Shown: piece after piece, positions 1 through 39,694 of the stretch
Position numbering within the stretch: the first letter of the stretch is position 1
How the letters are laid out: each line of letters begins with the position of its first letter
Assembly (NCBI GenBank): GCA_016795485.1
Contig: JAEUHM010000020.1
Span: 1-64,000, forward strand
Source: Verrucomicrobiaceae bacterium
GTDB lineage: Bacteria; Verrucomicrobiota; Verrucomicrobiia; Verrucomicrobiales; Verrucomicrobiaceae
Direction: 5' to 3'
Length of the DNA: 64,000 nucleotides
The notes under the pieces: model-generated
The model's input: only the letters and a program-made list of their open reading frames with translations
What the model was told of the DNA's origin: nothing
Database searches by the model: none
Made by a program: the position numbers and the translations under genes

Positions 1-73
1 TGCAACTCCCCTGGCGTCCGAACACGACCAGCCAAATCCCGCTTCAACAAAACCAATTTCGTTCCCATAAAGT

Positions 74-95
74 GTGGGATCACTCGCAATCCCAC
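74..95 (-). terminator. Hairpin downstream of the YHYH gene, possible terminator
   Basis: A perfect 7-bp inverted repeat (GTGGGAT at 74-80, ATCCCAC at 89-95) has an 8-base loop and lies about 90 bases beyond the stop of the leftward YHYH gene. On the minus strand it is followed by a weak T-containing stretch (ACTTTATGG), so it is at best a weak intrinsic terminator. The remaining bases of 1-181 hold no gene I can support. Confidence 0.35.
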
Positions 96-181
96 GCTTC
101 ACACTCAAATCCCTTCCCATGGCTGGTCTGGTGACCTTTACGATGGATTCACCTCCAACACGTGCATTCCGCAATTGTCTG

Positions 182-1072: not shown

Positions 1073-1091
1073 GGTCGAACGCTAGTCGATA

Positions 1092-2951
1092 TTAGCGCTG
1101 TGGAGTAGTGGTTTGTGGAGGTTGACCTGGACGGCCAGGCTGATTCGGGCGTTGTGGGCCCGGAGTGCTCTTTCGAATGATCCATACATTTCTTGGAAGT
1201 TCTTCACCGATCCGGGTATTTCGGCGAATGATCCGCGAGAGACTTTGTTGGTGAATCATACCCACCAACTCACGGGGCAAATGATGCTGATACCAGAAGC
1301 GGTCTCCATCCCTCGTGCGGCGAAACTGATCCGAGATGATACGGTGCAAGGTTTCTCCCAGCATGGAACCGTGGCGGTCCTTTTCAGCCAATCCAACGAT
1401 CCATAAATCCATGTCGTCGGGAGTGCCGTAGGCGGCTTCTAGTTCTGCGATCACTGCTGGATTTGGGTTTACGTCACGGAAGCTTCGGACGGTTGGTAAT
1501 CCAAGTGTCTCGCGCATCTGATTAAAGGACGGCAGCCCGTGATCGCGTCCGCGCTGGATGTTTAAGGCGGCAAGATCAAGCCCGCCCGAGCCAGGAGCAC
1601 CGAAGAGAAAGTTTCGCAAATCATCCACGATCCACTGATCAAGTTCTTCACATGCCTGGCCTGCTAAGCCGCGCAAAATGCTGTCAATCCCACTTTCGGT
1701 AATGAGCGCCGGATTGAAGAAGGACTCCAGCATGGTCAAGTTGCCTTCTGGCGCTTCGAGGCCATCAGCCCCCAGTCGCAATACGGTAGACGACACTGTG
1801 CTGTGCCCAAAACGATACGCCGCTGTCGCAAACTCGTTTGAAACACGTGCATCCACATTTGGATTGTAGCCAACGTATGGAGGGATAGCCCCACGACCTA
1901 ACAACACCGGTAAATACTCGCGGTAAGTGATCGCTTGTAACTCCGCTATCACGATCTTCCTGGCAAAGTGGAAGATCTCGTCATCGTCAGCGTCTGGGTT
2001 TTGTGCCGCGTATGCATTTGCCCAATAGTTGTGCTCACGGACGAACAGTGTATGAAGCGCAAGCAGGGTTGGTTGCTCGTTAACCCTGACATCGCCAGCC
2101 ACAAAAAAGTTTGGCCCTGGCGGCACATTGTCCAATCCATCTGTATTGAACGGAAGCAGAGGGCCATGAGCGCTGTCAGTTGTCTTCATCCGTCCTGTTC
2201 CATCAAGGGCACGCAGGGCATTGGCGCGAGCTTCGGTTGATCCGTAGATCATTGAGCCATCGATATAGTGAGTGATTGCGTTCTTTTGCTGACGAACGCC
2301 TTCCACGACTTCGTAGCTAGAGCGATTGAGTCCTATCGTCGCTGTTCCGGTATCCGTTGGATCAAACTGTGGGTCGCCCGCAGGAACAGCTACCGGGAAA
2401 GCCTCGGCTGGCAATGCGGTTGGTGTTTCATCGAGATCATGATCGAGAAACTGCCCCCAAGCCCAGAGGTAGTCCGTGGCTCCACGGCGATTCGGGCGTG
2501 CATTCTCAGGCCGCGCGGCAAGCGCATTTGAGATCGCTCTTGCGCTCGGCCTCGTTTCACCTGCGGGAGCGTCTGTTCCATTGCTGTAAGCTGCAACTCC
2601 TTTTCGGCCAAAAACCTGTCCCTCCGCTCCTTGATCGGGTTTGGCGACGTTGTTCCCCGTTCCGTCGAAACTCGCTCGCTCGCTTGGGAGATCAAACTCA
2701 ACTGGATCTCCACCAACCAAAGGCTTCCCAACAGTAGGGTGTGGTTGCTGGGGCCTCGTCCCTCCTTGTGGTGGTTTTGGTTGCCCCTGCGGATTGTTAA
2801 CTGGTCCACCTGTCTGTCCTCCGGAAGGTTGAGGGCGGGGCATGATGGCTGGTGGAGTGGCAGAACCCTGGGGTCCGGCTGGCCGCTGCTGGGAGACCGC
2901 GGCTGTGGTGAGGGCCACGGTGAGAATCACGGTGTGGGCTGTAGTTTTCAT
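1092..2951 (-). CDS. Secreted animal-type haem peroxidase (peroxidasin/MPO-like)
   Basis: The start chosen at 2951 gives 619 residues beginning with a clean signal peptide (MKTTAHTVILTVALTTAAVS); the frame is open further upstream but without a leader. After a proline/glutamine-rich linker (about residues 22-80) comes an An_peroxidase domain. It shows the distal-haem motif FLDHDLDETP (His171), VREHNYWA, the proximal-haem motif YRFGHS (His383) and LNIQRGRDHGLPSFN, all hallmarks of the myeloperoxidase/peroxidasin superfamily. Such enzymes use H2O2 to oxidise halides or phenolic substrates. A second Pro/Gln-rich tail follows the domain. It is likely exported and co-transcribed with the downstream YHYH gene. 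The family call is firm; the substrate is unknown. Confidence 0.92.
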   Translation of the reverse strand: MKTTAHTVILTVALTTAAVSQQRPAGPQGSATPPAIMPRPQPSGGQTGGPVNNPQGQPKPPQGGTRPQQPHPTVGKPLVGGDPVEFDLPSERASFDGTGNNVAKPDQGAEGQVFGRKGVAAYSNGTDAPAGETRPSARAISNALAARPENARPNRRGATDYLWAWGQFLDHDLDETPTALPAEAFPVAVPAGDPQFDPTDTGTATIGLNRSSYEVVEGVRQQKNAITHYIDGSMIYGSTEARANALRALDGTGRMKTTDSAHGPLLPFNTDGLDNVPPGPNFFVAGDVRVNEQPTLLALHTLFVREHNYWANAYAAQNPDADDDEIFHFARKIVIAELQAITYREYLPVLLGRGAIPPYVGYNPNVDARVSNEFATAAYRFGHSTVSSTVLRLGADGLEAPEGNLTMLESFFNPALITESGIDSILRGLAGQACEELDQWIVDDLRNFLFGAPGSGGLDLAALNIQRGRDHGLPSFNQMRETLGLPTVRSFRDVNPNPAVIAELEAAYGTPDDMDLWIVGLAEKDRHGSMLGETLHRIISDQFRRTRDGDRFWYQHHLPRELVGMIHQQSLSRIIRRNTRIGEELPRNVWIIRKSTPGPQRPNQPGRPGQPPQTTTPQR

Positions 2952-3090
2952 GGGATTGGGATTTGGCGTTTTGGATTTCCTGTGAGGTGGGTGGAACCTC
3001 CCATCCAGATCACATCCCAATCAGACCAGCCGATTGTTAAGCTCTCGTGTGCGTCAGACCTGAGAGTTGTAAAGCTATGGTAAATCTTCC

Positions 3091-4542
3091 TCAGAGGAGG
3101 GGCGCAAACATCCGGGCAACGCCTCCCCTCAAGCGCTCTCCAAAACTCTGCCTTTCTAGCCACTCCTCGGTGATCTCCCTTGCTCCCTGCATTCGTTGGT
3201 CAAACTCTGCATTGAGCCTTGCCGCTAACTGGTCGTCAAAACATCCCAAATTGAACTCAAAGTTGAGTCGGAGACTCCGAGGATCAAGGTTCGTAGACCC
3301 AATCAGCGAGAACTTACCATCCACGGTCATCATTTTGGAGTGGTCGAAGGGCGGAGCAGCTTCATGAATGCGGCAGCCACGACGGAGCAGGGGAGCGTAG
3401 AGGGTGCGAGACGCCCATTGGACAAACGGAAGGTTGTTGGTGCCTGGGACGAGGATCCGGATCTTTACACCTCTTAAGGCACACGTGATCAACGACGAGT
3501 AAATTGGCTCAGGTGGCAGGAAGTAAGGTGTCATGATGCGCACCTCGCGCTTGGCCTCGTCCAGTGCGGTGGCAATCGCGAAAAGATTGGTGTGCATGTC
3601 GTCATCGGGTCCATCAGGAAGGCCAATCGCAGAGATATCACCAGGCGTTTCAAGGGATGGAAACCACTCATCGCCTTTCAACCACTCGCCCGTACAAAAC
3701 GCCCAGTCTTCGGCAAACATCCGCATCAACTGCACCACGACAGGTCCATCAATGCGGAAGTGCAAATCTCTCGCTGGATGGTCGGGAACTGATGCCAGTA
3801 CATGTCCTGCTCTCACATTAATCCCTCCAGTGAAGCCAACTTTTCCGTCAACAATTAGTAGCTTTCGGTGGTTGCGAAGATTCATCGTGAGAAGACGGCC
3901 GATGAACCTTGCAGGCATGAAGCTGCGGGCATTCACCCCTCGCTTTTGCAAAACCTTTGTCACCCTTGGAGACGCGTAACGGGTACCTGCCTCATCCACC
4001 ATCACACGCACAGACACACCTCGTGCCGCAGCTTCCGAAAGCGCGTCCATGAACTCCGCACCGGGTCCGTGGGGCTCAAAAATATAGCTACACATGGCAA
4101 CACTCACCTTTGCCTCGCGAATCGCAGTTAGCATTTGAGGGTAGGTCTCATCTCCGTCTCGGAGCACCTGGATGCTGTTGCCTCCTAGCAATGACATTCG
4201 GCTAACAGTCCTTAAACTGTGTACTAATCCCTCCATGCTCTGCACTTCGGACTCGTAATCTGGCAGCAAGTGGGGCATGAACGCATCACCTGTCACCACT
4301 TCATGAGTCAATACCTCCCGATACCGTTTTCCTGCTCGCCTGATGAGGTTGATCCCCAGAAACAAGTAGAGGAGTGCACCCAAGATAGGCACCAACGCGA
4401 TGATGGCTAACCAGTAGGCCGCTGCCTTCGGGTCGTTCTTCTTCAGAATCACGTGAAGTGATGCCCAAATGACCGCAATGACCTCCAGGACCAGCACGGC
4501 CCAGTGCCAGGCAGTTGGTAGAAGATCGTCCAGCAGTCTCAT
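3091..4542 (-). CDS. cls: Cardiolipin synthase (phospholipase D family)
   Basis: Start taken as the ATG at 4542 (483 residues); a TTG three codons upstream is also in frame. Two N-terminal membrane segments (about 15-33 and 44-66) match the PLDNc region of bacterial cardiolipin synthases. Two PLD phosphodiesterase motifs follow: [17 protein letters not shown] (catalytic His225 and Lys227) and [18 protein letters not shown], the latter followed by [13 protein letters not shown]. The enzyme condenses two phosphatidylglycerols, or a phosphatidyl donor and PG, to cardiolipin at the inner membrane. Length and architecture are normal for Cls. Its start faces the divergent sulfatase gene, leaving about 60 bases for two promoters. 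Confidence 0.93.
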
Positions 4543-4604
4543 TTGTGCCAATCTGGCATCGGGTTGAACACTTTGCCATCGAACAACGTTCCCACCGCCC
4601 TCCT

Positions 4605-5969
4605 ATGCAACGAATCGTCACTACGCTTCTCCTTCTCGCGTTCTCAGCCGCGCATTCAGCCCAACCCAACATCATCTTCATTCTCTGTGATGACCTTGCA
4701 CAGGGCGACCTGGGTTGTTACGGTCAAAAGACCATCCAGACACCTCATCTGGACCGCATGGCGCACGAAGGCACGCGTTTCACCCAAGCGTTTTGTGGCA
4801 CCAGCGTTTGTGCGCCATCCAGGGCATCACTCATGACCGGTCTACACTCGGGCCATTGTCCTATTCGTGCCAATCGCGAAATCCAGCCTGAAGGTCAAAA
4901 GCCTCTCCCCGAAGGCACAGTCACCGTTGCGAGCGTGCTGAAGAATGCCGGCTACGCCACAGCCTGTATCGGCAAGTGGGGTATGGGAATGTTCGACACC
5001 CCAGGAAGTCCGTTGAAGCGCGGGTTTGATCACTTCTTTGGTTACAATTGCCAGCGCCACGCCCACAGCTATTTCCCAACTTATCTCTATGACGATGACA
5101 GGCGAATCGAGCTCCCTGGTAACGATGGCAAGTCTATTGGCAAAACCTATGCACAAAATCTCATCTCAGATGAGGCCGTTCGTTGGGTTGCCCATCAGCA
5201 CGAGAAGCCATTTTTCCTTTTCTATGCCATGACGCTACCGCACGGACGCCACGAAATCGATGAACTCGGTATTTACGAAAACAAGGATGGCTGGTCGCCC
5301 ACTCAAAAAGCGTATGCTGCCCAGGTCACGCGCCTTGATGCTGATGTAGGTCGTCTTCTCGATCTGCTGAAGAAAAATGGGATATCCGACAACACTCTGG
5401 TCATCATTTCGGGAGATAATGGTTCCTCGTTTGATCCAAAATCTGAGGTCGGCAGCCTTTTCAATCAAGCGTCCAACGGCTTGCGCGGCTTCAAGCGAAG
5501 TCTTTATGAGGGCGCATTGCGTCAGGCGGCTATCGCTTGGTGGCCGGGAACAATCCCAGCGGGCCGAGTCGTGGACGATCCCTGGGCATTTTGGGACTTT
5601 TTGCCCACTGCGGCAGAGCTCGCAGGCACCAAGACCGCTGCAGAAGTGAAGCTAGACGGCCTCAGTTTGGTAGACATGCTCAAAGGTGGCAAAGCACCCG
5701 TGAGGCCCTATTTCTACTGGGAACTTCATGAGGGAGCGTCTCAACAGGCGGCGCGTTTCGGACAATGGAAGGCAATCCGAAACAGTCCCAGCGAGCCGAT
5801 TGAGCTTTACGATCTCTCACAAGATCAGGCCGAAACCAACAACTTGGCCAACACCAACCCTGACATCATTGCACGGGCAGAATCCATTTTCCGTGAGGCC
5901 AGAACAGAACATCCCGACTGGCCGCTGGTTTCGACGCGACAACTCAAAAAGAAGAAGTCCAAAAAGTAA
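4605..5969 (+). CDS. Secreted S1-family sulfatase (arylsulfatase A-like)
   Basis: Translation from the ATG at 4605 gives 454 residues with a signal peptide ending at AAHSAQ, so an earlier in-frame ATG at 4515 inside the divergent cls region is rejected. The core motif [13 protein letters not shown] holds the CxPSR signature; Cys69 is the residue expected to be converted to formylglycine. [10 protein letters not shown] gives the N-terminal metal-binding Asp pair and IISGDNGSS the C-terminal metal site. Such enzymes hydrolyse sulfate esters of polysaccharides or arylsulfates. A lysine-rich tail (KKKKSKK) ends the protein. No sulfatase-maturase gene is seen nearby. The exact substrate cannot be read from the sequence. 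Confidence 0.92.
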
Positions 5970-5978
5970 GCAAGCTCC

Positions 5979-6356
5979 TCACTTGGCTACTGGCTTGCCC
6001 GCCTTGATCCAGGCTTTGATGCCACCATCTAGGTGGTGCACTTTAGTGAAACCAAGTTTGTCAAAAATGTCTAACGCTGCAGTGCTTCTTCCTCCAGCCG
6101 CACAGTGAACCAGATAGGGCTTGGATTTGTCCAATTTTCCGACAAGTCCCTCAAAAGTATCCTCCTGAAAATCAATGTTCTTCGCGTTGGCGATGTGACC
6201 TTCCTCAAACTCATCGGACGTTCGGACGTCCAGCACGATCACTGATTTGTTGTCCTCGAGAAGCGTGGCTGCCTGATTGGCATCGACGTGGATAACGTCA
6301 CCTGCTGAGGCGGATGCAGTGATGACGGTGAAGAGGGCAAAGAGGAAGGTTTTCAT
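5979..6356 (-). CDS. Exported single-domain rhodanese-like protein
   Basis: Start at 6356 gives 125 residues with a signal peptide ending ASASAGD; the longer frame upstream lacks a leader and overlaps the divergent promoter. A single rhodanese domain fills the rest: VLDVRTSDEFEEGHI (CH2-A motif) and the active-site loop HCAAGGRST with Cys85 as the sulfur-carrying cysteine, then HLDGGIKAW. It would transfer sulfane sulfur in the periplasm. It is convergent with the sulfatase gene, with 9 bases between stops. A link to sulfur released by sulfatases is tempting, but sulfate is not a rhodanese substrate, so I infer no pathway. Confidence 0.9.
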   Translation of the reverse strand: MKTFLFALFTVITASASAGDVIHVDANQAATLLEDNKSVIVLDVRTSDEFEEGHIANAKNIDFQEDTFEGLVGKLDKSKPYLVHCAAGGRSTAALDIFDKLGFTKVHHLDGGIKAWIKAGKPVAK

Positions 6357-6457
6357 AGCAATTGAGGCACTCAAGTTACGAATCAACGCACTCACCGAGT
6401 TCTTCTTCTCGGCGCATTTTGTCAAAAACGACCGGACTTCAATCGTATCGACTTCTC

Positions 6458-8203
6458 ATGTTCAAGTTGATTGCCCTCGCAGGCATGGCGGCTTCCACCG
6501 TTCTGGCTGCTGATTCACCAGTTCTTCATCCGAAGGCCGAATCTCTACCCCATGTCCATCAAGGCCCATTCGTAACGACGGCTGATGGTTCTATTCTCTG
6601 CATCGACTCAAAGAGTGCTCATCGTAGTGCTGATGGGGGACTCACTTGGACGAGGACAGCCCTTTTTGATGAGCCAACGAAGTTTGCGGTTAGTAACGAG
6701 CGCGCTCTCCTTCGGACCAGAGAAGGAGTAGTGATCTCCGCATGGATGAATGGAGTCGAGCGTCGACAACCAAAGGGTTGGCGTTGGGGCGAGGCGAGCG
6801 TTTCTTGGAAGGAGTTTGTGCTTCCAACTTATACCTGTAGAAGCACGGATGAAGGTATCTCTTGGGAGAAGCCGGTGAAACTGAGCGACCCCTGGTGTGG
6901 CTGCGTGCACTCGCTTATTCAGATGAAAAGCGGGCGCATTGTTTTGGTAGGCCAAGAGATTGTTCCTCAGTGGCGCCACGCGACCGTGATGTGGGCATCA
7001 GATGATTTAGGAAAGACGTGGCAGAGGGGAGATGTGCTGGACTACGGGGTTGGTGCTCACGATCACGCCGGCAGCATTGAAGGTTCAGTTGTTGAGAGGA
7101 AGGATGGCAGCCTCTATCTGCTTCTACGCACGGAATCGGGGTATCTGTGGGAAGCCACTTCTGCTGACGGGCTCCGCTGGACGAACTTGAAGCAAACCGC
7201 TGTCAGATCAGTCACCTGCTGTCCACAACTAGCTCGATTGACCGATGGCCGGATCGCTTTGCTTTGGAATGCCCCTCCTCGCCATGAGCCAACGAGTGGG
7301 TCATGCCGTGCAGAGTTGTGTCTAGCGTTCTCAAGTGATGAGGCTTCTACTTGGAGTAAGCCGATGATTGTGGCGGCAAGTTTCAGCCCCGGTGGGCGAG
7401 TCTCATATCCTTACCTCTATGAGCAGCAACCAGGTGAGTTGTGGATTACCACGATGCAAGGCGGCTTGCGAATGAAGGTCCGTATTGCAGACCTCACTTC
7501 AGGAGAGATTCCAATTTTCGTGCCGCCACCAAAGAGCACCCCCAAACTTGGCCAAATCATCATGTTTGGTGATAGCACCACAGCGCCCAGAGGAAGTGTC
7601 AAAGTCTATTCCGAGCGTGTGAATACGATGCTTCAAAGCATCGGTTCAAGTCTCACGGTCTACAATGCCGGAGTTCCAGGCAACACAACCGCACATGCCT
7701 TGAAGCGTCTACAATCGGACGTTCTCAAACACCAGCCCCGGGTCGTGGTGATGCAGTTTGGCATCAACGACAGCGCCATAGATGTTTGGAAAAAACCTCC
7801 AGCTACGGGTCCTCGCGTTGGTAAAGACCTGTTTGTGACAAACTACCGCAACATGATTGAAGCATGCCGCCAATCAGGAGCCAAAGTTATCGTGATGACG
7901 ACCAACCCCTTACGTTGGAGTTCCAAGACTCGTGAACTCTACGGTCACACCCCCTATAATCCCGAAGCTGAAGATGGATTCGAGACTGCGACATTGGTTG
8001 CCTACAACGAAGCGATTCGAGAGTTGGCGAAGGAGTTGAGTCTGCCCCTAATTGATGTTCACGCGGCCTACTCTCGCTTTGCTAACAAGAATAAGATTCC
8101 TGTTTCTGATATGCTCCCCGATGGCATGCATCCAGGTGAGACAGGCCATCAACTCGTTGCCGAGCTTCTCCTCCCTGCAATCCGCAGCGCCCTCATGAAA
8201 TGA
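6458..8203 (+). CDS. Sialidase-like (BNR) domain fused to SGNH hydrolase
   Basis: The ATG at 6458 precedes a signal peptide (MFKLIALAGMAASTVLAADS), giving 581 residues. Residues about 30-350 form a six-bladed sialidase/BNR region with four Asp-box-like repeats (SADGGLTWTR, STDEGISWEK, ASDDLGKTWQ, SSDEASTWSK). Residues about 365-580 are an SGNH/GDSL hydrolase with block I FGDSTT (Ser373), block II NAGVPGN, block III FGINDS and block V DGMHPGE (Asp555/His558). Sialidase plus acetylesterase in one chain suits trimming of O-acetylated acidic sugars; the substrate is inferred. It overlaps the next gene by ATGA at 8200, indicating translational coupling, and heads a four-gene operon. Confidence 0.88.
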   Translation: MFKLIALAGMAASTVLAADSPVLHPKAESLPHVHQGPFVTTADGSILCIDSKSAHRSADGGLTWTRTALFDEPTKFAVSNERALLRTREGVVISAWMNGVERRQPKGWRWGEASVSWKEFVLPTYTCRSTDEGISWEKPVKLSDPWCGCVHSLIQMKSGRIVLVGQEIVPQWRHATVMWASDDLGKTWQRGDVLDYGVGAHDHAGSIEGSVVERKDGSLYLLLRTESGYLWEATSADGLRWTNLKQTAVRSVTCCPQLARLTDGRIALLWNAPPRHEPTSGSCRAELCLAFSSDEASTWSKPMIVAASFSPGGRVSYPYLYEQQPGELWITTMQGGLRMKVRIADLTSGEIPIFVPPPKSTPKLGQIIMFGDSTTAPRGSVKVYSERVNTMLQSIGSSLTVYNAGVPGNTTAHALKRLQSDVLKHQPRVVVMQFGINDSAIDVWKKPPATGPRVGKDLFVTNYRNMIEACRQSGAKVIVMTTNPLRWSSKTRELYGHTPYNPEAEDGFETATLVAYNEAIRELAKELSLPLIDVHAAYSRFANKNKIPVSDMLPDGMHPGETGHQLVAELLLPAIRSALMK

Positions 8204-9510
8204 AGCACTTCATTATCCATCTGTTTTTCTCATCGGTAGCCTTGGCGATCCAGATCGCACCGTTTCGTGCCGACGTGACTCCACCGTTAGGTTCACCGCT
8301 GTGTGGTGGTCTCGTTAAGCCAGCCTCAGGCGTTAGCGAGTCCTTGCTCGCTCTCGGTGTGGTGCTTCTCAGCGATGAAAAGCCGATTGTATTGTGTGCC
8401 ATTGATTTTTGTGAGATTAGAGGTCAGGACCATGCCCACTGGCGCGCTGTCTTGGCTGATGCTGCAAAGACCTCTCCTGAGCGTGTGGCGCTTCACTCTC
8501 TTCACCAGCACAATGCGCCCTTGGTCGACTCTGAAGTGCAAAAACTTCTCCCTGACTTGGGCATCCTTGATCTGGGGGCGACCAAAGTGGCGCTACAAAA
8601 GGTGGCGGACTCGATTCGTGTTTCACTCAACCATCCGCAGACAGTCACTCATGTCGCAGTCGGGCAGGCTCCAGTCGATCAAGTTGCTGGGAATCGACGG
8701 ATTCAGATGACTAACGGAAAAGTAGGAAAGATGCGTGGTAGTTCATCCAAAGACAAGGTTCTGCGGGAACTGCCGGAGGGGCTTATCGATCCGATGTTGA
8801 AAACGGTTAGCTTCTGGAACGGAACCTCGAAGCTTGCGGCCCTTCACTACTATGCCACGCATCCCATGAGTTACTACGGCGATGGTATCATCAGTCATGA
8901 CTTTGTTGGCATGGCGCGGGAAAAGCGCACAAAGGAGGACGGTGTACCTCATATCTATTTCACAGGCTGTGGAGGAAACATTGGTGCGGGTAAATACAAT
9001 GACGGCAGTCCGGAGATGCGCCCTATTTTGGTTACCCGTCTCCTTGAGGCGATGGTTGAGTCGGAGAAGAACGTTCAGAGGAAGTCATTGAGCTACATTT
9101 CTTGGAAACACAAACCGGTCGTATTGCTTCCTCATCCAGATTTTAGCGACTCGCGCATGACTGCTATCGTGAGTAATCTCACCATCTCTCCCACGCAGAG
9201 GATTGTCGCGGCACTCAGATTAGGATTTATCAGATACCGCCAACCGATTCTGTTTACGTCGCTGCATCTTGGCGATGATGTCACGCTTTTGCACCTTCCT
9301 GGCGAGAGTTTTGTCGAGTATCAGTTATTCGCTCAGGAGCGGACACAGGGAGGCTTCGTTTGTACTGCAAGTTATGGCGATGGAGTGACTGGCTACATTC
9401 CATTGGAGCACTCGTTTGCGGAAGGCGGATATGAAGCCACTCAGGCTTATGCAGCCCCCGAGTCCGAGCACATCATTAAACAATCAATCGTCGACCTACT
9501 CAAAAGGTGA
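8200..9510 (+). CDS. Neutral/alkaline ceramidase-like protein (N-terminal domain only)
   Basis: This 436-residue protein has a signal peptide (MKHFIIHLFFSSVALA) and resembles the N-terminal catalytic domain of neutral/alkaline non-lysosomal ceramidases: IQIAPFRADVTPPLGSP at the mature N-terminus, HSLHQHNAPL (metal-binding His cluster), a later YYATHPMSYYGDG and TGCGGNIGAGKYN. Full ceramidases are near 650-700 residues with a C-terminal Ig-like domain, absent here. PVC genomes hold many such short homologues beside sulfatases and PSD1 genes, so a role in hydrolysing an amide or ester linkage in polysaccharide breakdown is at least as likely as ceramide cleavage. It overlaps both neighbours by four bases. 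Confidence 0.82.
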   Translation: MKHFIIHLFFSSVALAIQIAPFRADVTPPLGSPLCGGLVKPASGVSESLLALGVVLLSDEKPIVLCAIDFCEIRGQDHAHWRAVLADAAKTSPERVALHSLHQHNAPLVDSEVQKLLPDLGILDLGATKVALQKVADSIRVSLNHPQTVTHVAVGQAPVDQVAGNRRIQMTNGKVGKMRGSSSKDKVLRELPEGLIDPMLKTVSFWNGTSKLAALHYYATHPMSYYGDGIISHDFVGMAREKRTKEDGVPHIYFTGCGGNIGAGKYNDGSPEMRPILVTRLLEAMVESEKNVQRKSLSYISWKHKPVVLLPHPDFSDSRMTAIVSNLTISPTQRIVAALRLGFIRYRQPILFTSLHLGDDVTLLHLPGESFVEYQLFAQERTQGGFVCTASYGDGVTGYIPLEHSFAEGGYEATQAYAAPESEHIIKQSIVDLLKR

Positions 9511-11558
9511 TCAAATACTTGTTAGTTTTTTGTGCTCTGGTTCCCAGGCTGGGCGCGGTAGACTTTACTCGCGATGTGCGCCCCATCCTCGCGTCAAAAT
9601 GCTACGCCTGCCACGGCCCCGACGAAGAAAGCCGCGAGGCCGATCTTCGCCTCGACATACCAGCCGAGCATTTCGATGCCAAAACCTTCCTTGACCGCAT
9701 CACGACGAGCATTCTCGACGACGTGATGCCACCGCCCAAATCCCCCAAACCGCTCACCGCCTCCGAAAAGACCATCCTGCGCGAGTGGATCGCCGCTGGC
9801 GCGAAGTATGAGCCGCATTGGGCCTTTCAGCCGATTCGTTCACCGAAGTCCCCTAATGACATAGACAGCTTCATCCGCGCCGAATTGAAGAAACACGGCC
9901 TCCAGCCCGCTCCGCGTGCGGATTCGAGCACGCTCATCCGCCGTCTCTATCTCGATCTCATTGGTCTGCCGCCACCGAGTGACCAGATTGACTTCACTGA
10001 CGAAGCTTACGCCACTCTCGTGGACAAGCTCCTCGCTGATCCACGCTTCGGCGAGCGCTGGGGCCGCCACTGGCTCGACATGGCCCGCTACGCCGACTCG
10101 AACGGCTTCCTCGGCGACGGCCTCCGCCCAAACGCCTACCGCTACCGCGATTGGGTCATCCAGGCCTTCAACAACGACATGCCGTATGACGAATTCACGC
10201 TCGCTCAAATCGCTGGAGACCTTCTGGACAACCGGGAACCGCGAACTGAGAACCGAGAACGGTCCCCTGGCACCGGCTTCCACCGCAACGCCGCTTTAAA
10301 CACCGAAGCCGGCGTCGATAAAGAGGAAGCACGCTACCAAAACCTCGTCGATCGCGTCAACACCACCGCTCGCGTGTGGATGGGCCTCACCATCGGCTGT
10401 GCGCAGTGTCACACGCACAAATACGATCCCATCACCATCCGCGATTACTACAGCTTCTACGCCTTCTTCGACAACACCGAGGACCGCGACGACGCGAAAA
10501 CCAAAGCCCCACTCCTCGCCGAAGTCAGCAAAGACCGCCGCCAGACCTATGTGCACCTCGCAGGCGACTACACCCGCCGCGGCCCCGATGTGATGCCCGC
10601 CACGCTTTCCGCCTTGCCCGCCCAAGCAGGCAACACGCGCCTTGAACTCGCGAAGTGGATCGTTTCGCCGCAAAACCCGCTTACCTCCCGCGTCGCGGTG
10701 AATCACATCTGGAGCAAGCTCTTCGGCTACGGCCTCGTGCGCACGCCCGATGACTTCGGCACCAGCGGCGAAGCCCCCAGCCATCCCGAACTCCTCGACC
10801 ACCTCGCCACCGAGTTCATGCGCGGCGGTTGGAGCCGCAAACAACTCATCAAGCGCATCGTGATGAGCGAAACCTATCGCCAGGCTTCTCATAGTCGGTC
10901 CGATCAGTCCTATCAGACCGATCCGCTGAACAAACTCCTCTCGCATCAAAACCGCGTCCGCCTCGACGCCGAAGTCCTGCGCGACTCCGCACTCGCTGTC
11001 AGCGGCCTTTTGAAGCCCACTATCGGCGGTTCGAGCTTTCGCCCGCCTTTGCCGGAGGACGTGTTTGATGTCGGTCGCTCGTCGAACTGGCAGGCCAGCC
11101 CTGGCGATGAAATCTACCGCCGCAGTCTTTACATCATCACGCTACGCAGCGTGCTCTATCCCACGCTCACCACCTTCGACGCACCGGACGCCGCCGATGC
11201 CTGCGTGCGCCGCGAGCGCTCCAACACGCCGCTGCAAGCCCTCACGATGATGAACGACGGCGTCTTCGTCGAAGCCGCGCAGTCTCTCGCCCTTCGTGCG
11301 CTTCGTGAAGGCCCGAATCACCTCCAAAAGCTCTTCCGCATCGTCTTGAACCGAGAACCACGCCCCAAGGAGCTTTCCCGCCTCCAAACCTTCCACGACG
11401 AGCAAAAAGCCCGCGTGCAAAAAAGCGGCCCCGCAGCCCTCCAAGTGCTCGGAGCCCATCAAAAAGCCATTTCACCCGCTCAAGCCACCGAAGCCGCCAC
11501 GCTCGTCGCCGTCGCGCGAGTGCTCATGAACCTCGATGAGTTCATCAACCGCGAGTGA
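9507..11558 (+). CDS. DUF1549/DUF1553 (PSD1-type) protein with N-terminal haem motif
   Basis: The start is GTG at 9507, overlapping the TGA of the ceramidase-like gene (GTGA). After a signal peptide there is a planctomycete-type cytochrome motif, CYACHGPDEESREADLRLD, one CxxCH haem site, then DUF1549 (RRLYLDLIGLPPP, FGERWGRHWLDMARYADSNG) and DUF1553 (SRVAVNHIWSKLFGYGLV, RRSLYIITLR). At 683 residues it is shorter than most family members, mainly because the linker between the domains is reduced. A loop normally reading like QLAGDLLPN is replaced by a charged insert (NREPRTENRERSP) encoded by AACCG-rich DNA. The molecular function of the family is unproven; electron transfer or substrate oxidation in the periplasm is inferred. 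G+C is much higher than in the preceding genes. Confidence 0.9.
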   Translation: MIKYLLVFCALVPRLGAVDFTRDVRPILASKCYACHGPDEESREADLRLDIPAEHFDAKTFLDRITTSILDDVMPPPKSPKPLTASEKTILREWIAAGAKYEPHWAFQPIRSPKSPNDIDSFIRAELKKHGLQPAPRADSSTLIRRLYLDLIGLPPPSDQIDFTDEAYATLVDKLLADPRFGERWGRHWLDMARYADSNGFLGDGLRPNAYRYRDWVIQAFNNDMPYDEFTLAQIAGDLLDNREPRTENRERSPGTGFHRNAALNTEAGVDKEEARYQNLVDRVNTTARVWMGLTIGCAQCHTHKYDPITIRDYYSFYAFFDNTEDRDDAKTKAPLLAEVSKDRRQTYVHLAGDYTRRGPDVMPATLSALPAQAGNTRLELAKWIVSPQNPLTSRVAVNHIWSKLFGYGLVRTPDDFGTSGEAPSHPELLDHLATEFMRGGWSRKQLIKRIVMSETYRQASHSRSDQSYQTDPLNKLLSHQNRVRLDAEVLRDSALAVSGLLKPTIGGSSFRPPLPEDVFDVGRSSNWQASPGDEIYRRSLYIITLRSVLYPTLTTFDAPDAADACVRRERSNTPLQALTMMNDGVFVEAAQSLALRALREGPNHLQKLFRIVLNREPRPKELSRLQTFHDEQKARVQKSGPAALQVLGAHQKAISPAQATEAATLVAVARVLMNLDEFINRE

Positions 11559-34779: not shown

Positions 34780-35091
34780 TTAGTCATCCCCCGGACTCAG
34801 AACTTGATTGAAAAAATCTTCGACTTTTTTTTCATCAGGGCATCCTCGGCTGAGCAATCTCTTCTGAAACTGGCCAATGGCGAGGATCACAACGTCCTCG
34901 CGGTCAGTTTGAGAACCCATTTTGTTCTTCGTGAAGCTCATACCGCGGGCGTAAAGGATATCGTAAGCCTTGAGCCAAGCGAGATCGAACGCTCGCTTAT
35001 CGCTTGAAATCAACTCACAGCAGGGCGGCAGCTCTGCATCCAAAGATGGAAGCGTGGGATGGGCATCGGTCATTGGTTGATCGGGCGGCAT
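34780..35091 (-). CDS. Sigma-70 family factor, N-terminal (region 2) part of an interrupted gene
   Basis: The frame encodes a region 2-like segment: DLAWLKAYDILYARGMSFTK, then SQTDREDVVILAIGQF and EDFFNQVL, followed by a TAA at 34782-34780. The downstream region-4 ORF continues in the same frame. Start is uncertain: ATG at 35091 or 35073, neither with a strong ribosome site; an upstream TTG at 35124 is less likely. DREDVV corresponds to the DAEDVVQ helix of ECF sigma factors. A 103-residue region-2-only protein could bind core polymerase but not a -35 box, so on its own it is probably non-functional. Confidence 0.55.
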   Translation of the reverse strand: MPPDQPMTDAHPTLPSLDAELPPCCELISSDKRAFDLAWLKAYDILYARGMSFTKNKMGSQTDREDVVILAIGQFQKRLLSRGCPDEKKVEDFFNQVLSPGDD

Positions 35092-35495
35092 ACTTGCTGC
35101 GGGCTTGAATCTTGCCAAGCACAAATGTCGACATCGCCATCAAAGTCAATCTAGCGAAGGGCCGACCTGCTTTCCATCGCTTCGGACAGCCTGCGGCACC
35201 TATAGCGACGATATCCAGAGCGCATTTGAAGAGCACCGCATGAACTGCACGACCGCTGCCAAAACCTGCTCCAACCTCAAAGTTAAATGCGACAAACCCA
35301 GGTCTTCCTGAAATCGCCCCGCCAGTTGACGGTATTGAAGCGCTGGGCCTGGAATGGTAAGGCGAGGTGTCCTCACCCATCCGTCGTGGCAGTCCAATCA
35401 ACATCATCTCCTGCCCAGTGCAAAGAAGGCGGAAGACGGAAATCCAAACACAACACCCCTCTCCGTCTCAGACGTTGAATCACGCCTTCACTCAG

Positions 35496-35527
35496 GTCTG
35501 GCGTCTGATGTCTGGCATCTGATGTCT
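35496..35527. repeat. Heptamer tandem repeat
   Basis: Successive units read GTCTGGC, GTCTGAT, GTCTGGC, ATCTGAT, GTCT, that is a 14-bp unit GTCTGGCRTCTGAT repeated 2.3 times. It is intergenic and likely a slippage-prone satellite. Confidence 0.85.
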
Positions 35528-35574
35528 TCCCCTAACATTCTACTGCCACCATTCTTCTGCCATCCCGTCAAGAA

Positions 35575-35601
35575 CCAAGCACCAGGAACAAAGAACAAAC
35601 C
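35575..35601 (+). repeat. Inverted repeat, left copy (27 bp)
   Basis: This sequence, starting CCAAGCACCAGGAAC and ending AACAAACC, recurs in opposite orientation at 37563-37590 with one substitution and one inserted base. The two copies bracket the HNH and zinc-ribbon genes and both 83-bp direct repeats. The motif is low-complexity (AAC/AAG rich), so it may also be a dispersed intergenic repeat. Confidence 0.7.
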
Positions 35602-35725
35602 TCCACCACCCCACCCCAAGGCTGTTAATCCGATCAAAATGTCAGCGCAATATCGATTGATCAAGATAGGCGTATGATCACAAAAGCCTCATGACTACCG
35701 ACATCCAAGCAAAAGGGCCCCAACC

Positions 35726-35754
35726 TTGACAGAACAAGCCCTCACCACCATGAT
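35726..35754 (+). promoter_or_regulatory. Possible sigma-70 promoter of the HNH gene
   Basis: TTGACA at 35726-35731 is a perfect -35 hexamer and is followed, after 17 bases, by CATGAT at 35749-35754 (4 of 6 matches to TATAAT). Transcription would start about 85 bases before the HNH ATG at 35847, upstream of a palindrome. Confidence 0.4.
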
Positions 35755-35776
35755 TCACCATGAAACAGTCCCAGAA

Positions 35777-35796
35777 ATATCACTCGGCAGTGATAT
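35777..35796. promoter_or_regulatory. Perfect palindrome, possible operator before the HNH gene
   Basis: ATATCACT (35777-35784) and AGTGATAT (35789-35796) are exact inverted repeats around a four-base CGGC centre, 50 bases before the start codon and about 22 bases after the candidate -10. Position suits an operator or a leader hairpin. Confidence 0.45.
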
Positions 35797-35846
35797 CGCC
35801 TCACACTAATTAGACTGTTCGTCCAAGTAACAGAGTCCTCCATCCC

Positions 35847-36230
35847 ATGACACGAGAGCGCATTGAGTATATCGTAGCAGAGTTCCAGAAGTCCTATCGC
35901 ACTGGCGAGTGGCACGCTCGGCTGGGCATTCAGCAAGACTTCAAGTGCATTTACTGTGGTCAAGACTACTTGGCCCACTACAATGCATATAGGTCGGCAG
36001 AGTTGGACCACATTATTCCTATTTCTCAGGGCGGCTCCGAGGGGCTTGAGAATGTGGCCGTGTGTTGCAGAACGTGCAATCAGTTGAAGCTTACTTACTA
36101 TCCACAGGGGTCAACTCGGGAAGAACAGATTGCAGACGCGAGAAGGTATGTCACTGAATCACGTCTCAGCTACGAGAACGAACTCGCAGAGATTAGAGAG
36201 ATGGTTCGTGGACCATCGCCCGAACTGTAA
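35847..36230 (+). CDS. HNH endonuclease-family protein
   Basis: The 127-residue protein is an HNH/McrA-type nuclease: FKCIYCGQDYL (first CxxC), AELDHIIPISQGGSEGLENV (the DH of the catalytic His with the bba-metal loop) and VCCRTCNQLK (second CxxC plus Asn). It is small, has no extra domain, and carries no signal peptide. Free-standing HNH proteins occur in restriction systems, phages, mobile introns and integron cassettes; here no methylase or phage gene is adjacent. It is followed after 42 bases by the first 83-bp repeat. Its lower G+C than the flanking operons and the repeat context suggest recent acquisition. Confidence 0.88.
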   Translation: MTRERIEYIVAEFQKSYRTGEWHARLGIQQDFKCIYCGQDYLAHYNAYRSAELDHIIPISQGGSEGLENVAVCCRTCNQLKLTYYPQGSTREEQIADARRYVTESRLSYENELAEIREMVRGPSPEL

Positions 36231-36272
36231 TACATCATTTTACGTTGATCCAGCCACTTCACTAACCAAGCG

Positions 36273-36355
36273 GGGCGAATAATAAAGGCCGTATTGCTGT
36301 GAGGTGTTGAGTTTGTTGCTTTTGGATTTCATCGAGCCAGCAACTACGGTCGCGG
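36273..36355 (+). repeat. 83-bp direct repeat, copy 1 (cassette-boundary candidate)
   Basis: Ungapped hand alignment to 37351-37433 gives 72 of 83 identical bases. Inside are imperfect dyad arms CCGTATTGCTG (36289-36299) and CAGCAACTACGG (36338-36349), differing by one unpaired C, with a central spacer of about 38 bases. Copy 1 is followed by GTTGAAC (36355-36361), which fits the integron core consensus GTTRRRY; copy 2 lacks it. It begins 42 bases after the HNH stop codon. Confidence 0.85.
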
Positions 36356-36657
36356 TTGAACACTGCCATGCCGCGATAGCGGCTCCACTGCTGAACTAGG
36401 GTTTAGAATGGACATCGAGGCCCATATACAATACTTCTTTGTTCATCTTCATATGTGGTGTGTTGATTGCACTTTACTTCGCTCGCCGGATCGGGACTCC
36501 ACGTCCTTCCCCAAACATGCGGATAGGCCTCGCCAGAAGCAGCCCGCGATTGATGAACGCTGCCGCGTTCACCCTGGCGGGAAAGCCGTTGGCTTTTCTG
36601 TCTCACTCCGTTCGGCTCATAAGCGGCCAGCACACCACGCCTTCTTCAACAAGCCGT

Positions 36658-36696
36658 GCTGCACGTCCAACCAGCTTGCGCTGGCTGGATCGCAGC
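36658..36696 (+). repeat. Long imperfect hairpin before the zinc-ribbon gene
   Basis: GCTGC(36658-36662)/GCAGC(36692-36696), TCCA(36666-36669)/TGGA(36686-36689) and CCAGC(36671-36675)/GCTGG(36680-36684) nest around a TTGC loop, with small asymmetric bulges between the arms. The bulged-stem form recalls attC-type sites. It ends 33 bases before the proposed GTG start. Confidence 0.6.
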
Positions 36697-36729
36697 CATA
36701 AAGTCTCGCCCCAAAAACGAAGTCAGCCA

Positions 36730-37326
36730 GTGTTACACTACTGCTACAACTGTCTCACGAAGAAGGTCGGCCAGACGTCCTCCTGCCCGAAGTGTGGCAG
36801 AGTGCCAAAGACGCCTAGACAGCTTCAGCTTTCGACGGAGCTTTCCAAACAGAATTGGTCACCTGAGCAGACTGGGGCATTTGCACAGGCCATCGGTGAT
36901 AGGCGCTACGAAGGCCTTCCAAAGCGCATAGCGGTTTTTGCTGCTGCTGTTGCAGAGGAGGACGACATGAGAGTGAAGCGAGTTCACGCAGCCAATGAAG
37001 CTCTGGCCGAGGATCGTGAGTGGGCGGCCAATTACCACACTCGCCGTCGGACGCCGTCCATGATGTATGGATGCTTTTTTGGTCCATTGGTCATATTCTT
37101 CGGTGCTAGCTTCCTTTACATTGGCTCCCAGAAAGACGGTGGAGGGGCGTCGATCATCCTTGGTTTGGGCATGCTTCTCATAGGGCTTACGTTCGCACAT
37201 CACAGCTACACCAAGTTTGTTCAACTATGGAGCAGAACCACGCCAGATAAGAGCACTTCGTCAGACTGGTTTGTGAGTTCAATTGTGATCGCGATCAAGA
37301 AGCGACTGAACAAATCAGACACATGA
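36730..37326 (+). CDS. Zinc-ribbon protein with two C-terminal membrane segments
   Basis: The start is uncertain; GTG at 36730 places the zinc ribbon at the N-terminus (VLHYCYNCLTKKVG, then SSCPKCGRVP, a CxxC...CxxC pair) and yields 198 residues. The longer upstream frame crosses hairpin-rich DNA. A helical, charged middle (ELSKQNWSPEQTGAFAQAI, VAEEDDMRVKRVHAANEAL) is followed by two membrane segments (MMYGCFFGPLVIFFGASF; ASIILGLGMLLIGLTFAHH) and a basic tail. I do not recognise the family; the zinc ribbon suggests nucleic-acid or protein binding at the inner membrane. It lies between the two 83-bp repeats, with copy 2 beginning 24 bases after its stop. Confidence 0.65.
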   Translation: MLHYCYNCLTKKVGQTSSCPKCGRVPKTPRQLQLSTELSKQNWSPEQTGAFAQAIGDRRYEGLPKRIAVFAAAVAEEDDMRVKRVHAANEALAEDREWAANYHTRRRTPSMMYGCFFGPLVIFFGASFLYIGSQKDGGGASIILGLGMLLIGLTFAHHSYTKFVQLWSRTTPDKSTSSDWFVSSIVIAIKKRLNKSDT

Positions 37327-37350
37327 GACGACCTATCGCGATGAACAACC

Positions 37351-37433
37351 GGGCGAACAACCAAGGTCGTATTGCTGCGAGGGGTTGAGGTTGTTGCTCT
37401 TGGGTTTCATCGGGCCAGCAACTACGGTCCCGG
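37351..37433 (+). repeat. 83-bp direct repeat, copy 2 (cassette-boundary candidate)
   Basis: This second copy is 72/83 identical to 36273-36355. It carries the same dyad arms (GTCGTATTGCTG and CAGCAACTACGGTCCCGG), and here CCGGG at the left and CCCGG at the right extend the stem. It begins 24 bases after the zinc-ribbon stop codon, the same relative position as copy 1 after the HNH gene. Confidence 0.85.
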
Positions 37434-37562
37434 AGAACGGGATTGAATGGGCTCGGTGTGATTTGTTCTGTTCGGGGAGTTGGCTATCCGCAGTGTCGTT
37501 GATGATGGTGATCTCCAGCAGATGGGTTTCTGAATGACTCGGTTGGAGATGTTGAGGAAGGT

Positions 37563-37590
37563 GGTTTGGTTCTTTGTTCTTGGTGCTTGG
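37563..37590 (-). repeat. Inverted repeat, right copy (28 bp)
   Basis: The minus strand reads CCAAGCACCAAGAAC... and matches 35575-35601 with one substitution and one indel. It lies about 130 bases before the LysE-type gene and closes the putative cassette region. Confidence 0.7.
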
Positions 37591-37723
37591 GTTTGTTTTG
37601 ATGGGGCGACACGCTTCTCCGCTGTATGGCGGGAGGATGGCAGGTGTGGTGTCGTCTTTATTTGGTTCTGGCCTTGGTCTGCGGGGTGGCTTTCTGTGAG
37701 AGTGGTGGCAATCTTTGGCTGCT

Positions 37724-38350
37724 ATGTTTGGCATTCATGATTTTGGCGTCTTTGTGATCACGGGTCTCGTGGTGAACCTGACCCCTGGTCCGGACACGTT
37801 CTATATTCTCGGGCGGAGCATGGCTCAGGGCCGCAGGGCGGGTATCGCATCGGTGCTTGGTATTTCTACCGGGTGCCTGGTGCACACTTTGGCGGCGGCG
37901 TTTGGCTTGTCTGCGCTGCTTGCGGCGTCTGCTGCTGCTTTTCTTGCGATCAAGCTGATTGGTGCGGCTTATCTGGTCTATCTGGGTGCGCGGATGTGGT
38001 TTACGGAGGCGTCAGCCGCTACGATTCCATCGGCTTTCTCGTCGTCGAGCTTTTGGGCGGTGTATCGGCAAGGGCTGATAACGAATGTGCTGAACCCTAA
38101 GGTGGCGTTGTTCTTTCTGGCGTTTATGCCTCAGTTCATTGCGGCGGACAGCCAGGCAAAGTTTGCGGCGTTCATGACGCTTGGAGCGGCATTTGTCATC
38201 ACGGGGACGATGTGGTGTCTCTGCCTGGCTTGGTTCTCGTCTCGGCTTGGGGAGCGGATTCGCGAAAACGCGGGGTTTGCTGTGTTTCTGAATCGAACTG
38301 CGGGAGCGCTCTTGGTGTTTCTGGGAGTTCGGCTGGCGATCTCGAAGTGA
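37724..38350 (+). CDS. LysE/RhtB-family amino-acid exporter
   Basis: ATG at 37724 (MFGIHDFGVFVITGL) is preferred to a TTG three codons earlier; 208 residues. The LysE signature is clear: VVNLTPGPDTFYILGRSMAQGRRAG and onward, with GISTGCLVHTLAAAFGLSALL, and six hydrophobic segments. NVLNPKVALFFLAFMPQF is the second family hallmark. It exports small amino acids or homoserine lactone-like compounds by proton antiport at the inner membrane. It starts just past the repeat region. About 100 bases separate it from signal peptidase, so co-transcription is possible but unproven. Confidence 0.93.
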   Translation: MFGIHDFGVFVITGLVVNLTPGPDTFYILGRSMAQGRRAGIASVLGISTGCLVHTLAAAFGLSALLAASAAAFLAIKLIGAAYLVYLGARMWFTEASAATIPSAFSSSSFWAVYRQGLITNVLNPKVALFFLAFMPQFIAADSQAKFAAFMTLGAAFVITGTMWCLCLAWFSSRLGERIRENAGFAVFLNRTAGALLVFLGVRLAISK

Positions 38351-38452
38351 GGGCTGGAGGAATGGAGTGGTGGACGGACGGGTGGGCAAAGTGGGGTTTG
38401 GGTAATTTCATGTTTGCCAGATGGCTACTGGCATCCATGATGCGCGCTCCCC

Positions 38453-39694
38453 ATGTGGATTTTCACCCCCAAGTATCTTAAACACGGCAAGCTGCTGCTG
38501 AAGGGCGCTACGCGTTTCGTCAATTATAAGCGCGATGTGCTGCCTGCTGAAAAGCTGAGCGAGATCGAGGGTCTCGTTGGCCAGTTGAAGGTGGCGCTGA
38601 AGTCGAAAGACCGGAAGCGGCTGGATGAACTGAATGAGGAGATCAATGACGCGTGCCAGCGGTCGTTGCCGAACCTGAAGAGCTCTGACATTGCGGACAA
38701 TGTGGAGGTGTTCTTTGTGGCGATCGTGGTAGCGCTGGGGATCCGGGCTTACATCGCTCAGCCGTTCCAGATTCCTACGGCGTCGATGCAGCCAACGCTG
38801 AATGGGTACAGGGCGGTGCCGACAGAGGACGATACTTCTCCTAACTTCGTGATGCGCCTGTTCCGGAAGGTGATGGGAGAGACTTACATCAATGTGATCT
38901 CGAATCACACGGGGCTGCTGAACCCGCGGGAGCCGTTGACGGAGCACCGCTTGCTGATTTTTACTTACACGACGATTAACTTTGCCGATGGGCATTCCAT
39001 CCGTGTGTGGTGCCCAAAGACGCAGCTTGAGCGACCAAGGAATGCGGACAATGACGCAGCTAGGGGGCTGGGCTTCTATGATTTTGTGCGTGTGCCTGTA
39101 GTTCCCGCGACTGGTGAGGATGGCAAGGAGGTGCTGACGCCGGACTCGAACAAAGAGCTGCGGGCGAATGCGTCTGGGGTGCTGGTGACGAAGGGTCAAC
39201 TGCTGGCCCGTGGGGTGCTGCATGCGGGGGACCATGTGTTGGTGAACAAGTTCGCTTATCATTTCAGAGCGCCGCAGCGTGGGGAGGTGTTTGTCTTTAC
39301 CACGAAGAATATCTCGGGCATCCAGGTGCCCTTTGAACAAGGCTCGCAGCACTACATCAAGCGCTTGGCGGGGCTGCCAGGGGATCACCTTGAGGTGAAG
39401 AGCCCTGAACTGCACATCAATGGGAAACGGGCTGAAGAGCCAGGGTTTAATGCCGTGATGTCTGGCACCTTTGACAAGCCCAACGAGGGCTACCGGGGCT
39501 ATGGCGATGCGAGGGCGGTCTACGGTACGCTCAACGATGTGACGCTGGGTCCCAAAGAGTACATGGCCATGGGTGACAATAGCTACAACAGCTCTGACTC
39601 CCGCGTCTGGGGGCCTGTACCGCAGCGGAATCTGGTAGGGCCTGGGATGTTCTGCTACCTGCCGTTCACCAGCCATTGGGGCGTCATTCGTTGA
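38453..39694 (+). CDS. lepB: Signal peptidase I
   Basis: The 413-residue enzyme is longer than usual because of an N-terminal helical region (about 1-80) and a large insert between the catalytic boxes. One membrane segment (about 83-100) precedes box B, FQIPTASMQPTLNG with nucleophile Ser111. Later boxes are GDHVLVNKFAYHFRAPQRGE, the general-base Lys in HYIKRLAGLPGDHLEV, and MGDNSYNSSDSRVWGPV. It removes signal peptides from the many exported proteins encoded nearby. PVC and Chlamydiae lepB products share the long insert. It ends 3 bases before the squalene/phytoene synthase gene, suggesting one transcript. Confidence 0.93.
   Translation: MWIFTPKYLKHGKLLLKGATRFVNYKRDVLPAEKLSEIEGLVGQLKVALKSKDRKRLDELNEEINDACQRSLPNLKSSDIADNVEVFFVAIVVALGIRAYIAQPFQIPTASMQPTLNGYRAVPTEDDTSPNFVMRLFRKVMGETYINVISNHTGLLNPREPLTEHRLLIFTYTTINFADGHSIRVWCPKTQLERPRNADNDAARGLGFYDFVRVPVVPATGEDGKEVLTPDSNKELRANASGVLVTKGQLLARGVLHAGDHVLVNKFAYHFRAPQRGEVFVFTTKNISGIQVPFEQGSQHYIKRLAGLPGDHLEVKSPELHINGKRAEEPGFNAVMSGTFDKPNEGYRGYGDARAVYGTLNDVTLGPKEYMAMGDNSYNSSDSRVWGPVPQRNLVGPGMFCYLPFTSHWGVIR

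What the first reader, a model, noticed from the sequence alone, without database searches (positions are those of the whole stretch)
35847..37433. Gene-cassette-like array: two accessory genes each followed by an 83-bp dyad repeat
The HNH gene and the zinc-ribbon membrane-protein gene both point rightward and are each followed, 42 and 24 bases after their stops, by a copy of the same 83-bp element (36273-36355, 37351-37433; 72/83 identical, no gaps). Each copy has imperfect inverted arms (CCGTA-TTGCTG / CAGCAACTACGG) differing by one bulged base. Bulged-stem sites immediately 3' of single promoterless genes are the layout of integron cassettes and attC sites. Copy 1 is followed by GTTGAAC, fitting GTTRRRY, but copy 2 lacks it and no integrase lies in the window. 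It may be an undescribed PVC cassette system or an attC-like satellite.
Basis: partly seen in the sequence, partly recalled or inferred. Interest (0 to 1): 0.62.

Follow-up and report, generated by a model that had tools for sequence, protein, structure and literature searches.

The report
Integron cassettes with transposon-split attC-like sites
The two genes are gene cassettes of a chromosomal integron whose integrase gene lies on another contig of the same verrucomicrobial genome; the repeat marks their 3' ends, and a target-specific transposable element has left remnants exactly in these recombination sites, so the array is mostly of a known kind with an unusual, partly broken site.

Summary
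The 83-bp element is at the stated places (87% identical, no gaps) and has about 17 copies in the genome. Every copy that can be judged lies just 3' of a different ORF on the same strand. The integron reading is largely right. The genome holds a complete integron integrase (TIGR02249, 382 bits) with attI and about 26 canonical attC matches. Five of eleven 83-bp loci have a canonical attC within 3 kb on the same strand. Contig-end overlaps lead from attI through an IS110 copy to two more 83-bp cassettes. Cassette 5' starts match their own 3' ends (permutation p = 0.0002), as integron cassettes should.

Between the two genes lies the end of an IS110/IS1111-type element (36358-36706). Intact relatives sit at the same point of canonical attC sites, GTT|RRRY. 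So the 83-bp element is most likely an attC whose R' box is split (copy 1) or decayed (copy 2).

Two features argue against a plain attC. The bulged base is in the opposite arm to the genome's canonical attC, and the fold is weak. The 'membrane protein' N-terminus is translated IS sequence. This is a CALIN-like array with IntI in trans, not a new system.

The parts
35600..35819 (+). Leader module X before cassette 1: TTGACA (35726-35731), 17-nt spacer, CATGAT (35749-35754), hairpin ATATCACT-CGGC-AGTGATAT (35777-35796), ending in GTT (35817-35819), the left cassette junction
   Evidence: Ten aligned copies in the genome keep TTGACA; nine of the ten end in a TT junction. Promoter scan hit with 10 of 12 matches. 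Copies on C18 and C49 are 93-94% identical. Promoter function is inferred.
35820..36277 (+). Cassette 1 body (starts CGTCC, ends GGGCG before the R''-like AAT/AAC)
   Evidence: Start/end complementarity 4 of 5 for this cassette; boundaries read
35847..36230 (+). HNH endonuclease-domain gene, 127 aa
   Evidence: Pfam HNH_5 and HNH, E about 1e-10
36273..36357 (+). 83-bp element copy 1, read as attC-like: R'' edge GGGCG|AAT, L'' GGCCGTATTGCTG, L' CAGCAACTACGG, then GTT (36355-36357)
36358..36706 (-). Remnant of an IS110/IS1111-type element with internal deletion: a 45-nt left piece, then tnp N-terminus remnant plus left end (36404-36706), ending AAAGTCT|CGCC
   Evidence: Pieces of this block are 95% (142 nt) and 82% (94 nt) identical to the C27 IS left end, and align with intact IS of genomes G015 and G035
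36707..37355 (+). Cassette 2 body (starts CGCCC, ends GGGCG before AAC)
   Evidence: Start/end complementarity 5 of 5
36730..37326 (+). Zinc-ribbon plus membrane-segment protein gene; GTG start proposed here, since the upstream 97 codons of the 295-aa ORF are IS and junction sequence
   Evidence: ORF; no Pfam or NCBIfam match; IS overlap
37351..37433 (+). 83-bp element copy 2; R' core position reads ATT (37442-37444), not GTT
37434..37546 (+). Type C continuation after the last site, shared with C18 (91% over 178 bp including the element) and in part with C36

Best explanation
The stretch is a two-gene cassette array of a chromosomal integron, separated from its integrase (CALIN-like). An integron integrase encoded on another contig (C16) captured single-gene cassettes. 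Each cassette runs from just after GTT of the preceding site to the end of its own attC. The 83-bp element marks the cassettes' 3' ends and is most likely a second attC sequence family in this genome (R'' GSCGAAC, L'' GGCCGTA-TTGCTG, L' CAGCAAcTACGGCC, core GTT). An IS110/IS1111-type element that targets attC at GTT|RRRY later inserted in these sites. A shortened, tnp-deleted form now splits the R' box of copy 1, and copy 2 has lost GTT. The window array is therefore probably frozen as it stands: its sites could not fold or be cut as intact attC. Shown: repeat, copy number, 3' position, integrase, mixed arrays, IS homology and insertion point of intact IS. Inferred: that the 83-bp element itself was once recombined by IntI, the order of events, and present inactivity.
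For: About 17 copies in clusters of same-strand copies. All 15 copies with enough upstream sequence follow an ORF of at least 116 aa within -10 to +50 bp, against 19% for random positions. Complete IntI of 336 aa at C16 with the motif SWEWFWFFP..RRRHHLHE typical of integron integrases and 382 bits to TIGR02249, divergent from an attC array. About 26 canonical attC matches; same-strand canonical attC within 3 kb of 83-bp copies on C13, C18, C36, C51 and C4, P about 4e-9 under a rough uniform model. Contig C1, whose end repeats the attI region of C16, overlaps the ends of C45 and C44 by exactly 141 bp, and both carry an 83-bp cassette. Cassette start versus own end complementarity 56 of 65 against 46 for shuffled pairings, p = 0.00018; canonical cassettes as positive control 28 of 30. 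Intact IS of 1772-1801 bp in G035 and G015, and copies on C16, C1 and C27, sit at attC GTT|, and where the other junction is visible (C27, G015, G035) at |CGCC or |AGGCC. The remnant in the window ends at the same |CGCC and begins after GTT.
Against: The extra base of the 83-bp dyad is in the right arm, whereas in the genome's canonical attC it is in the left arm. Folding of joined 83-bp sites is weak (z -1.4 to -1.9, against -1.1 to -5.1 for canonical sites). Covariation is modest. No 83-bp copy without IS-like or module A/B/C sequence behind it was found, and those modules never occur without the 83-bp element. The left part of the remnant has no detectable similarity to the right end of the intact IS. 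The complementarity test used boundaries read by eye. Contig gaps prevent a full map.
Confidence: 0.62

Rival explanations
1. The 83-bp element is not attC but the right-end non-coding region (seekRNA region) of an IS110/IS1111-type element. The whole 430-bp block is a non-autonomous IS that replaced the attC sites of these cassettes. The integron context is the same.
For: IS1111 elements have a non-coding region downstream of tnp that makes an ~82-nt RNA (PMC11187229). The 83-bp element lies on that side of the remnant. Modules A/B/C occur only next to it. A homologue in another Verrucomicrobiales genome is followed by similar B sequence. A TATTGCTGCG / TATGGCTGCG subterminal match can be read at the two ends. 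The bulge polarity is wrong for attC.
Against: All five IS copies with a visible right end have GTT as left flank, whereas here the flank would be the R'' box. The left ends are near-identical, so the same insertion point is expected. GTT sits exactly at the right edge of the 83-bp element. The R''-edge bases vary with the cassette, as for attC. No intact IS with this end was found.
Confidence: 0.22
2. The 83-bp element is an attC in reverse orientation (minus strand), belonging to a cassette whose body is module A/B/C. The genes were captured in inverted orientation.
For: On the minus strand the boxes read R'' GTTCAAC (fits RYYYAAC) and R' GTTCGSC, with the extra base in the left arm, as in canonical attC.
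Against: Every associated gene points toward the element on the plus reading. Canonical attC in the same arrays have the plus orientation. The promoter-like leader is at the 5' ends of the genes.
Confidence: 0.07
3. A dispersed REP/MITE-like intergenic repeat or RNA terminator with no link to integrons, which happens to lie 3' of genes.
For: Many copies; no Rfam match; interspersed repeats are common in this genome.
Against: Co-location with canonical attC on the same strand, contig overlaps to the attI contig, cassette-specific R'' edges.
Confidence: 0.05

Closest known systems
CALIN (cluster of attC sites lacking an integron integrase) of a sedentary chromosomal integron
   Same: Single-gene cassettes of mostly unknown function, same orientation, related 3' elements, no integrase nearby, IntI elsewhere in the genome
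   Different: The window's two sites are split or lack GTT, have reversed bulge polarity, and are separated by an IS remnant; each array starts with a repeated promoter-like leader
IS1111-attC group of insertion sequences (Tetu and Holmes 2008; Post and Hall 2009; cited in PMC11187229, PMC11089894)
   Same: IS110-family DEDD transposase, insertion at one point of attC, subterminal inverted repeats in intact copies, long non-coding region downstream of tnp
   Different: In the window only a tnp-deleted remnant is left, its left part does not match the intact IS, and the host is a Verrucomicrobiales bacterium
V. cholerae VCR-type attC family (from own knowledge)
   Same: Many near-identical sites in one genome, one per cassette
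   Different: VCR are intact and fold well; the 83-bp sites here do not

Membership tests
Integron / CALIN | Integron integrase in the genome with the integron-specific motif | tested here: met
   TIGR02249 382 bits over cut-off 265, complete 336 aa, SWEWFWFFPSGQ...RRRHHLHE
Integron / CALIN | Tandem single-gene cassettes, same orientation, each with a 3' site | tested here: met
   15 of 15 evaluable copies 3' of different ORFs; two in the window
Integron / CALIN | R'' box of a cassette complementary to the start (RRRY) of the same cassette | tested here: met
   56 of 65 against 46 shuffled, p = 0.00018; boundaries set by eye
Integron / CALIN | Array linked to canonical attC / attI | tested here: met
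   Other 83-bp loci. The window array itself holds only 83-bp copies.
attC site (the 83-bp element) | Imperfect L''/L' stem with extrahelical base on the left (L'') side | tested here: not met
   Extra base is in the right arm; canonical attC of the same genome have it in the left arm
attC site (the 83-bp element) | Intact R' GTTRRRY paired with R'' | tested here: not met
   Copy 1: GTT followed by IS remnant; copy 2: ATT
attC site (the 83-bp element) | Stable bottom-strand fold with paired cores | tested here: inconclusive
   Joined sites: core pairing 0.12-0.85, z -1.4 to -1.9; stem pairing 86% of cells, weak covariation
attC site (the 83-bp element) | Recombination by IntI | not testable with these tools
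   Needs an assay
IS1111-attC group (intact copies in this genome and relatives) | IS110-family transposase | tested here: met
   NF033542 214.6 bits over cut-off 140; PF01548 over cut-off
IS1111-attC group (intact copies in this genome and relatives) | Insertion at a fixed point in attC | tested here: met
   Five copies at GTT| (C16, C1, C27, G015, G035), three with the right junction visible at |CGCC or |AGGCC
IS1111-attC group (intact copies in this genome and relatives) | Subterminal inverted repeats and 3' non-coding region | tested here: met
   ATGGCTGCGG / ATGGCTCCGG near the ends; roughly 350 nt between tnp stop and right end in C1, read by eye
IS1111-attC group (intact copies in this genome and relatives) | seekRNA-guided targeting | not testable with these tools
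   No RNA data

The most novel reading that the evidence does not exclude
The 430-bp block (83-bp element plus IS110 end) is itself a functional hybrid recombination site: cassettes have been exchanged at it after the IS element entered, so an RNA-guided IS end has been adopted as part of an integron attC.
Probability: 0.07. Interest if true: 0.75.

Novelty: new variant of a known kind. Interest (0 to 1): 0.42.

Why it matters
It shows dispersed cassette arrays in a Verrucomicrobiales genome with the integrase in trans, and an attC-targeting IS110-type element that has colonised them. If the split sites are dead, it is a natural example of an RNA-guided IS freezing integron cassettes. If they are not, it would be a hybrid site. 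Attention to the IS ends also prevents a mis-called gene start (here 97 extra codons).

Tried and rejected
(1) Rfam search of 35000-38500: nothing. (2) RNA model of the 83-bp element in 388 genomes of the phylum: own genome only, with strict filters; pattern in the same 388: own only; 56 relatives: one partial match, G054; named genome collection: a Verrucomicrobiales MAG with the homologue, and two matches in Pantoea and Vagococcus not examined and probably chance. (3) Coding on the minus strand: open frame MKPKSNKLNPSQQYGLYC looked conserved, but changes fall evenly over codon positions (27, 24, 29) and no Pfam, plasmid or relatives' match was found. (4) Modules A/B/C as independent repeats: they never occur away from the 83-bp element. 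(5) Left module as tnp C-terminus: no significant similarity. (6) Empty-site test by synteny at the LysE gene: three relatives have the gene but not the neighbourhood, so no information. (7) Guide-like match GAGACGTT in the intact IS non-coding region: seen by eye, not better than chance in a rough estimate and not covarying in G015 or G035, dropped.

Full report
Observation. The 83-bp repeat is present as described. In the whole genome (6.5 Mb, 61 contigs) the copy-2 sequence finds about 17 copies at E < 0.01, plus a more diverged one on C4. They cluster: two in the window, two on C18, two on C49, three on C57, three on C36, always on one strand within a cluster, and often near contig ends, as expected of repeat-rich arrays.

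Position. For 15 copies with enough upstream sequence, an ORF of at least 116 aa on the same strand ends between 10 bp inside and 50 bp before the element; the other two (C50, C51) are cut by contig ends. Random positions have such an ORF (>= 80 aa) in 19% of cases. The proteins differ; those with matches are an HNH protein (window), a glyoxalase-like protein (C45) and a DUF6714 protein (C44), and most have none.

Integrase. The genome encodes one integron integrase over the curated cut-off (C16:67-1005, 382 bits), complete at 336 aa with the integron-type motif. To its right, pointing away, is an array of cassettes with canonical attC of about 91-93 bp (GGCGAACAAAACGGATGCAGGC...GCCTGATCCGAGACGTTCGCC) and about 128 bp. 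A search with both finds 26 matches. On C13, C18, C36, C51 and C4 canonical attC lie within 3 kb of 83-bp copies on the same strand; a rough uniform expectation gives P about 4e-9. Contig C1 (canonical attC array) ends in sequence that repeats the attI region of C16 (127 bp exact) and starts with 141 bp that are exactly the ends of both C45 and C44, each with an 83-bp cassette. This ties 83-bp cassettes to the integron itself, subject to assembly.

Cassette ends. In an integron the first bases of a cassette are complementary to the R'' bases at its own 3' end. For 13 cassettes with 83-bp sites the match is 56 of 65 against 46 for shuffled pairings (p = 0.00018). The six canonical cassettes used as control give 28 of 30. 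The boundaries were read by eye, which is a weakness.

The IS. Between the two window genes the conserved block runs to 36713. From 36404 on it matches the transposase start and left end of IS110-family elements: pieces of 95% and 82% to the copy on C27, and weaker to intact elements of 1772 and 1801 bp in two genomes of the same family. The transposase is IS110 family. Copies with a visible right end on C16, C1 and C27 and in G015 and G035 begin directly after GTT of a canonical attC, and where the other junction is seen they are followed by CGCC or AGGCC. This is the behaviour reported for the IS1111-attC group (cited in PMC11187229 and PMC11089894). In the window the remnant begins after GTT (36355-36357) and ends before CGCC (36707), so it occupies the same point. 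This explains why copy 1 seems to be followed by GTTGAAC. It also shows that the N-terminal part of the 295-aa ORF is IS and junction sequence.

What the 83-bp element is. I favour attC: cassette-specific R'' edge, L''/L' arms, GTT at the right place. Against this, the extra base is in the right arm while canonical attC here have it in the left, the bottom-strand fold is weak, and covariation is modest (85.7% of cells paired against at most 59% for slid partners). The rival that it is the IS's own right end is kept at 0.22. By the stated rule I do not file the 83-bp element as an attC member: two defining features were tested and not met. The claim is that it occupies the place of, and probably derives from, an attC. 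The array as a whole I file as CALIN-like.

Distribution. The element is almost private to this genome. None of 388 phylum genomes has it, and one Verrucomicrobiales MAG (G054, contig JAGNEJ010000107.1) has a diverged homologue, 3' of an ORF and followed by a similar continuation.

Leader. Each array start examined (window, C18, C49, C57, six on C36) has a repeated leader, ten of ten with TTGACA, nine of ten ending in a TT cassette junction. A promoter is predicted in the window copy. So the genes are not obviously promoterless.

Literature. Integrons are on record in Verrucomicrobiota, and CALINs can arise by off-target insertion, loss of intI or rearrangement (PMC8618304). CALINs can be mobilised in trans by IntI (PMC12444791).

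Noticed in passing
C16 about 1120-1265 and C1 (L070) 4001-4141: Two different first cassettes follow what looks like the same attI region (C16: GTTCTCCG..., C1: GTTCGCCC...). Either two attI copies exist or the sequenced culture was mixed because the integron is active.
   Followed up: partly
C1 start, C45 end, C44 end: One IS110 end (141 bp) leads to two different 83-bp cassettes, again suggesting duplicated or heterogeneous arrays.
   Followed up: partly
window 35600-35819; C36, C18, C49, C57, C51: Repeated leader with invariant TTGACA and a hairpin just before the first cassette of arrays; could be a promoter-bearing attI-like or attC-like module.
   Followed up: partly
window 36439-36729: The long ORF of the zinc-ribbon gene reads through IS and junction sequence; an automatic annotation would give a false N-terminus.
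   Followed up: yes
L035 (C36) 1-11000: Long cassette-rich stretch with at least six leader copies and three 83-bp copies, also a PIN-domain-like and small-partner gene pair near 5300-4830 (by eye).
   Followed up: no
window 35575-35599 and 37566-37590: 25-bp inverted repeat (92%) flanking the array; similar 30-bp pieces occur at many places in the genome, so it is probably a common intergenic repeat.
   Followed up: partly
C4:47592-47696 (L132): Diverged 83-bp-like copy behind a GC-rich minisatellite and about 0.9 kb after a canonical attC.
   Followed up: partly
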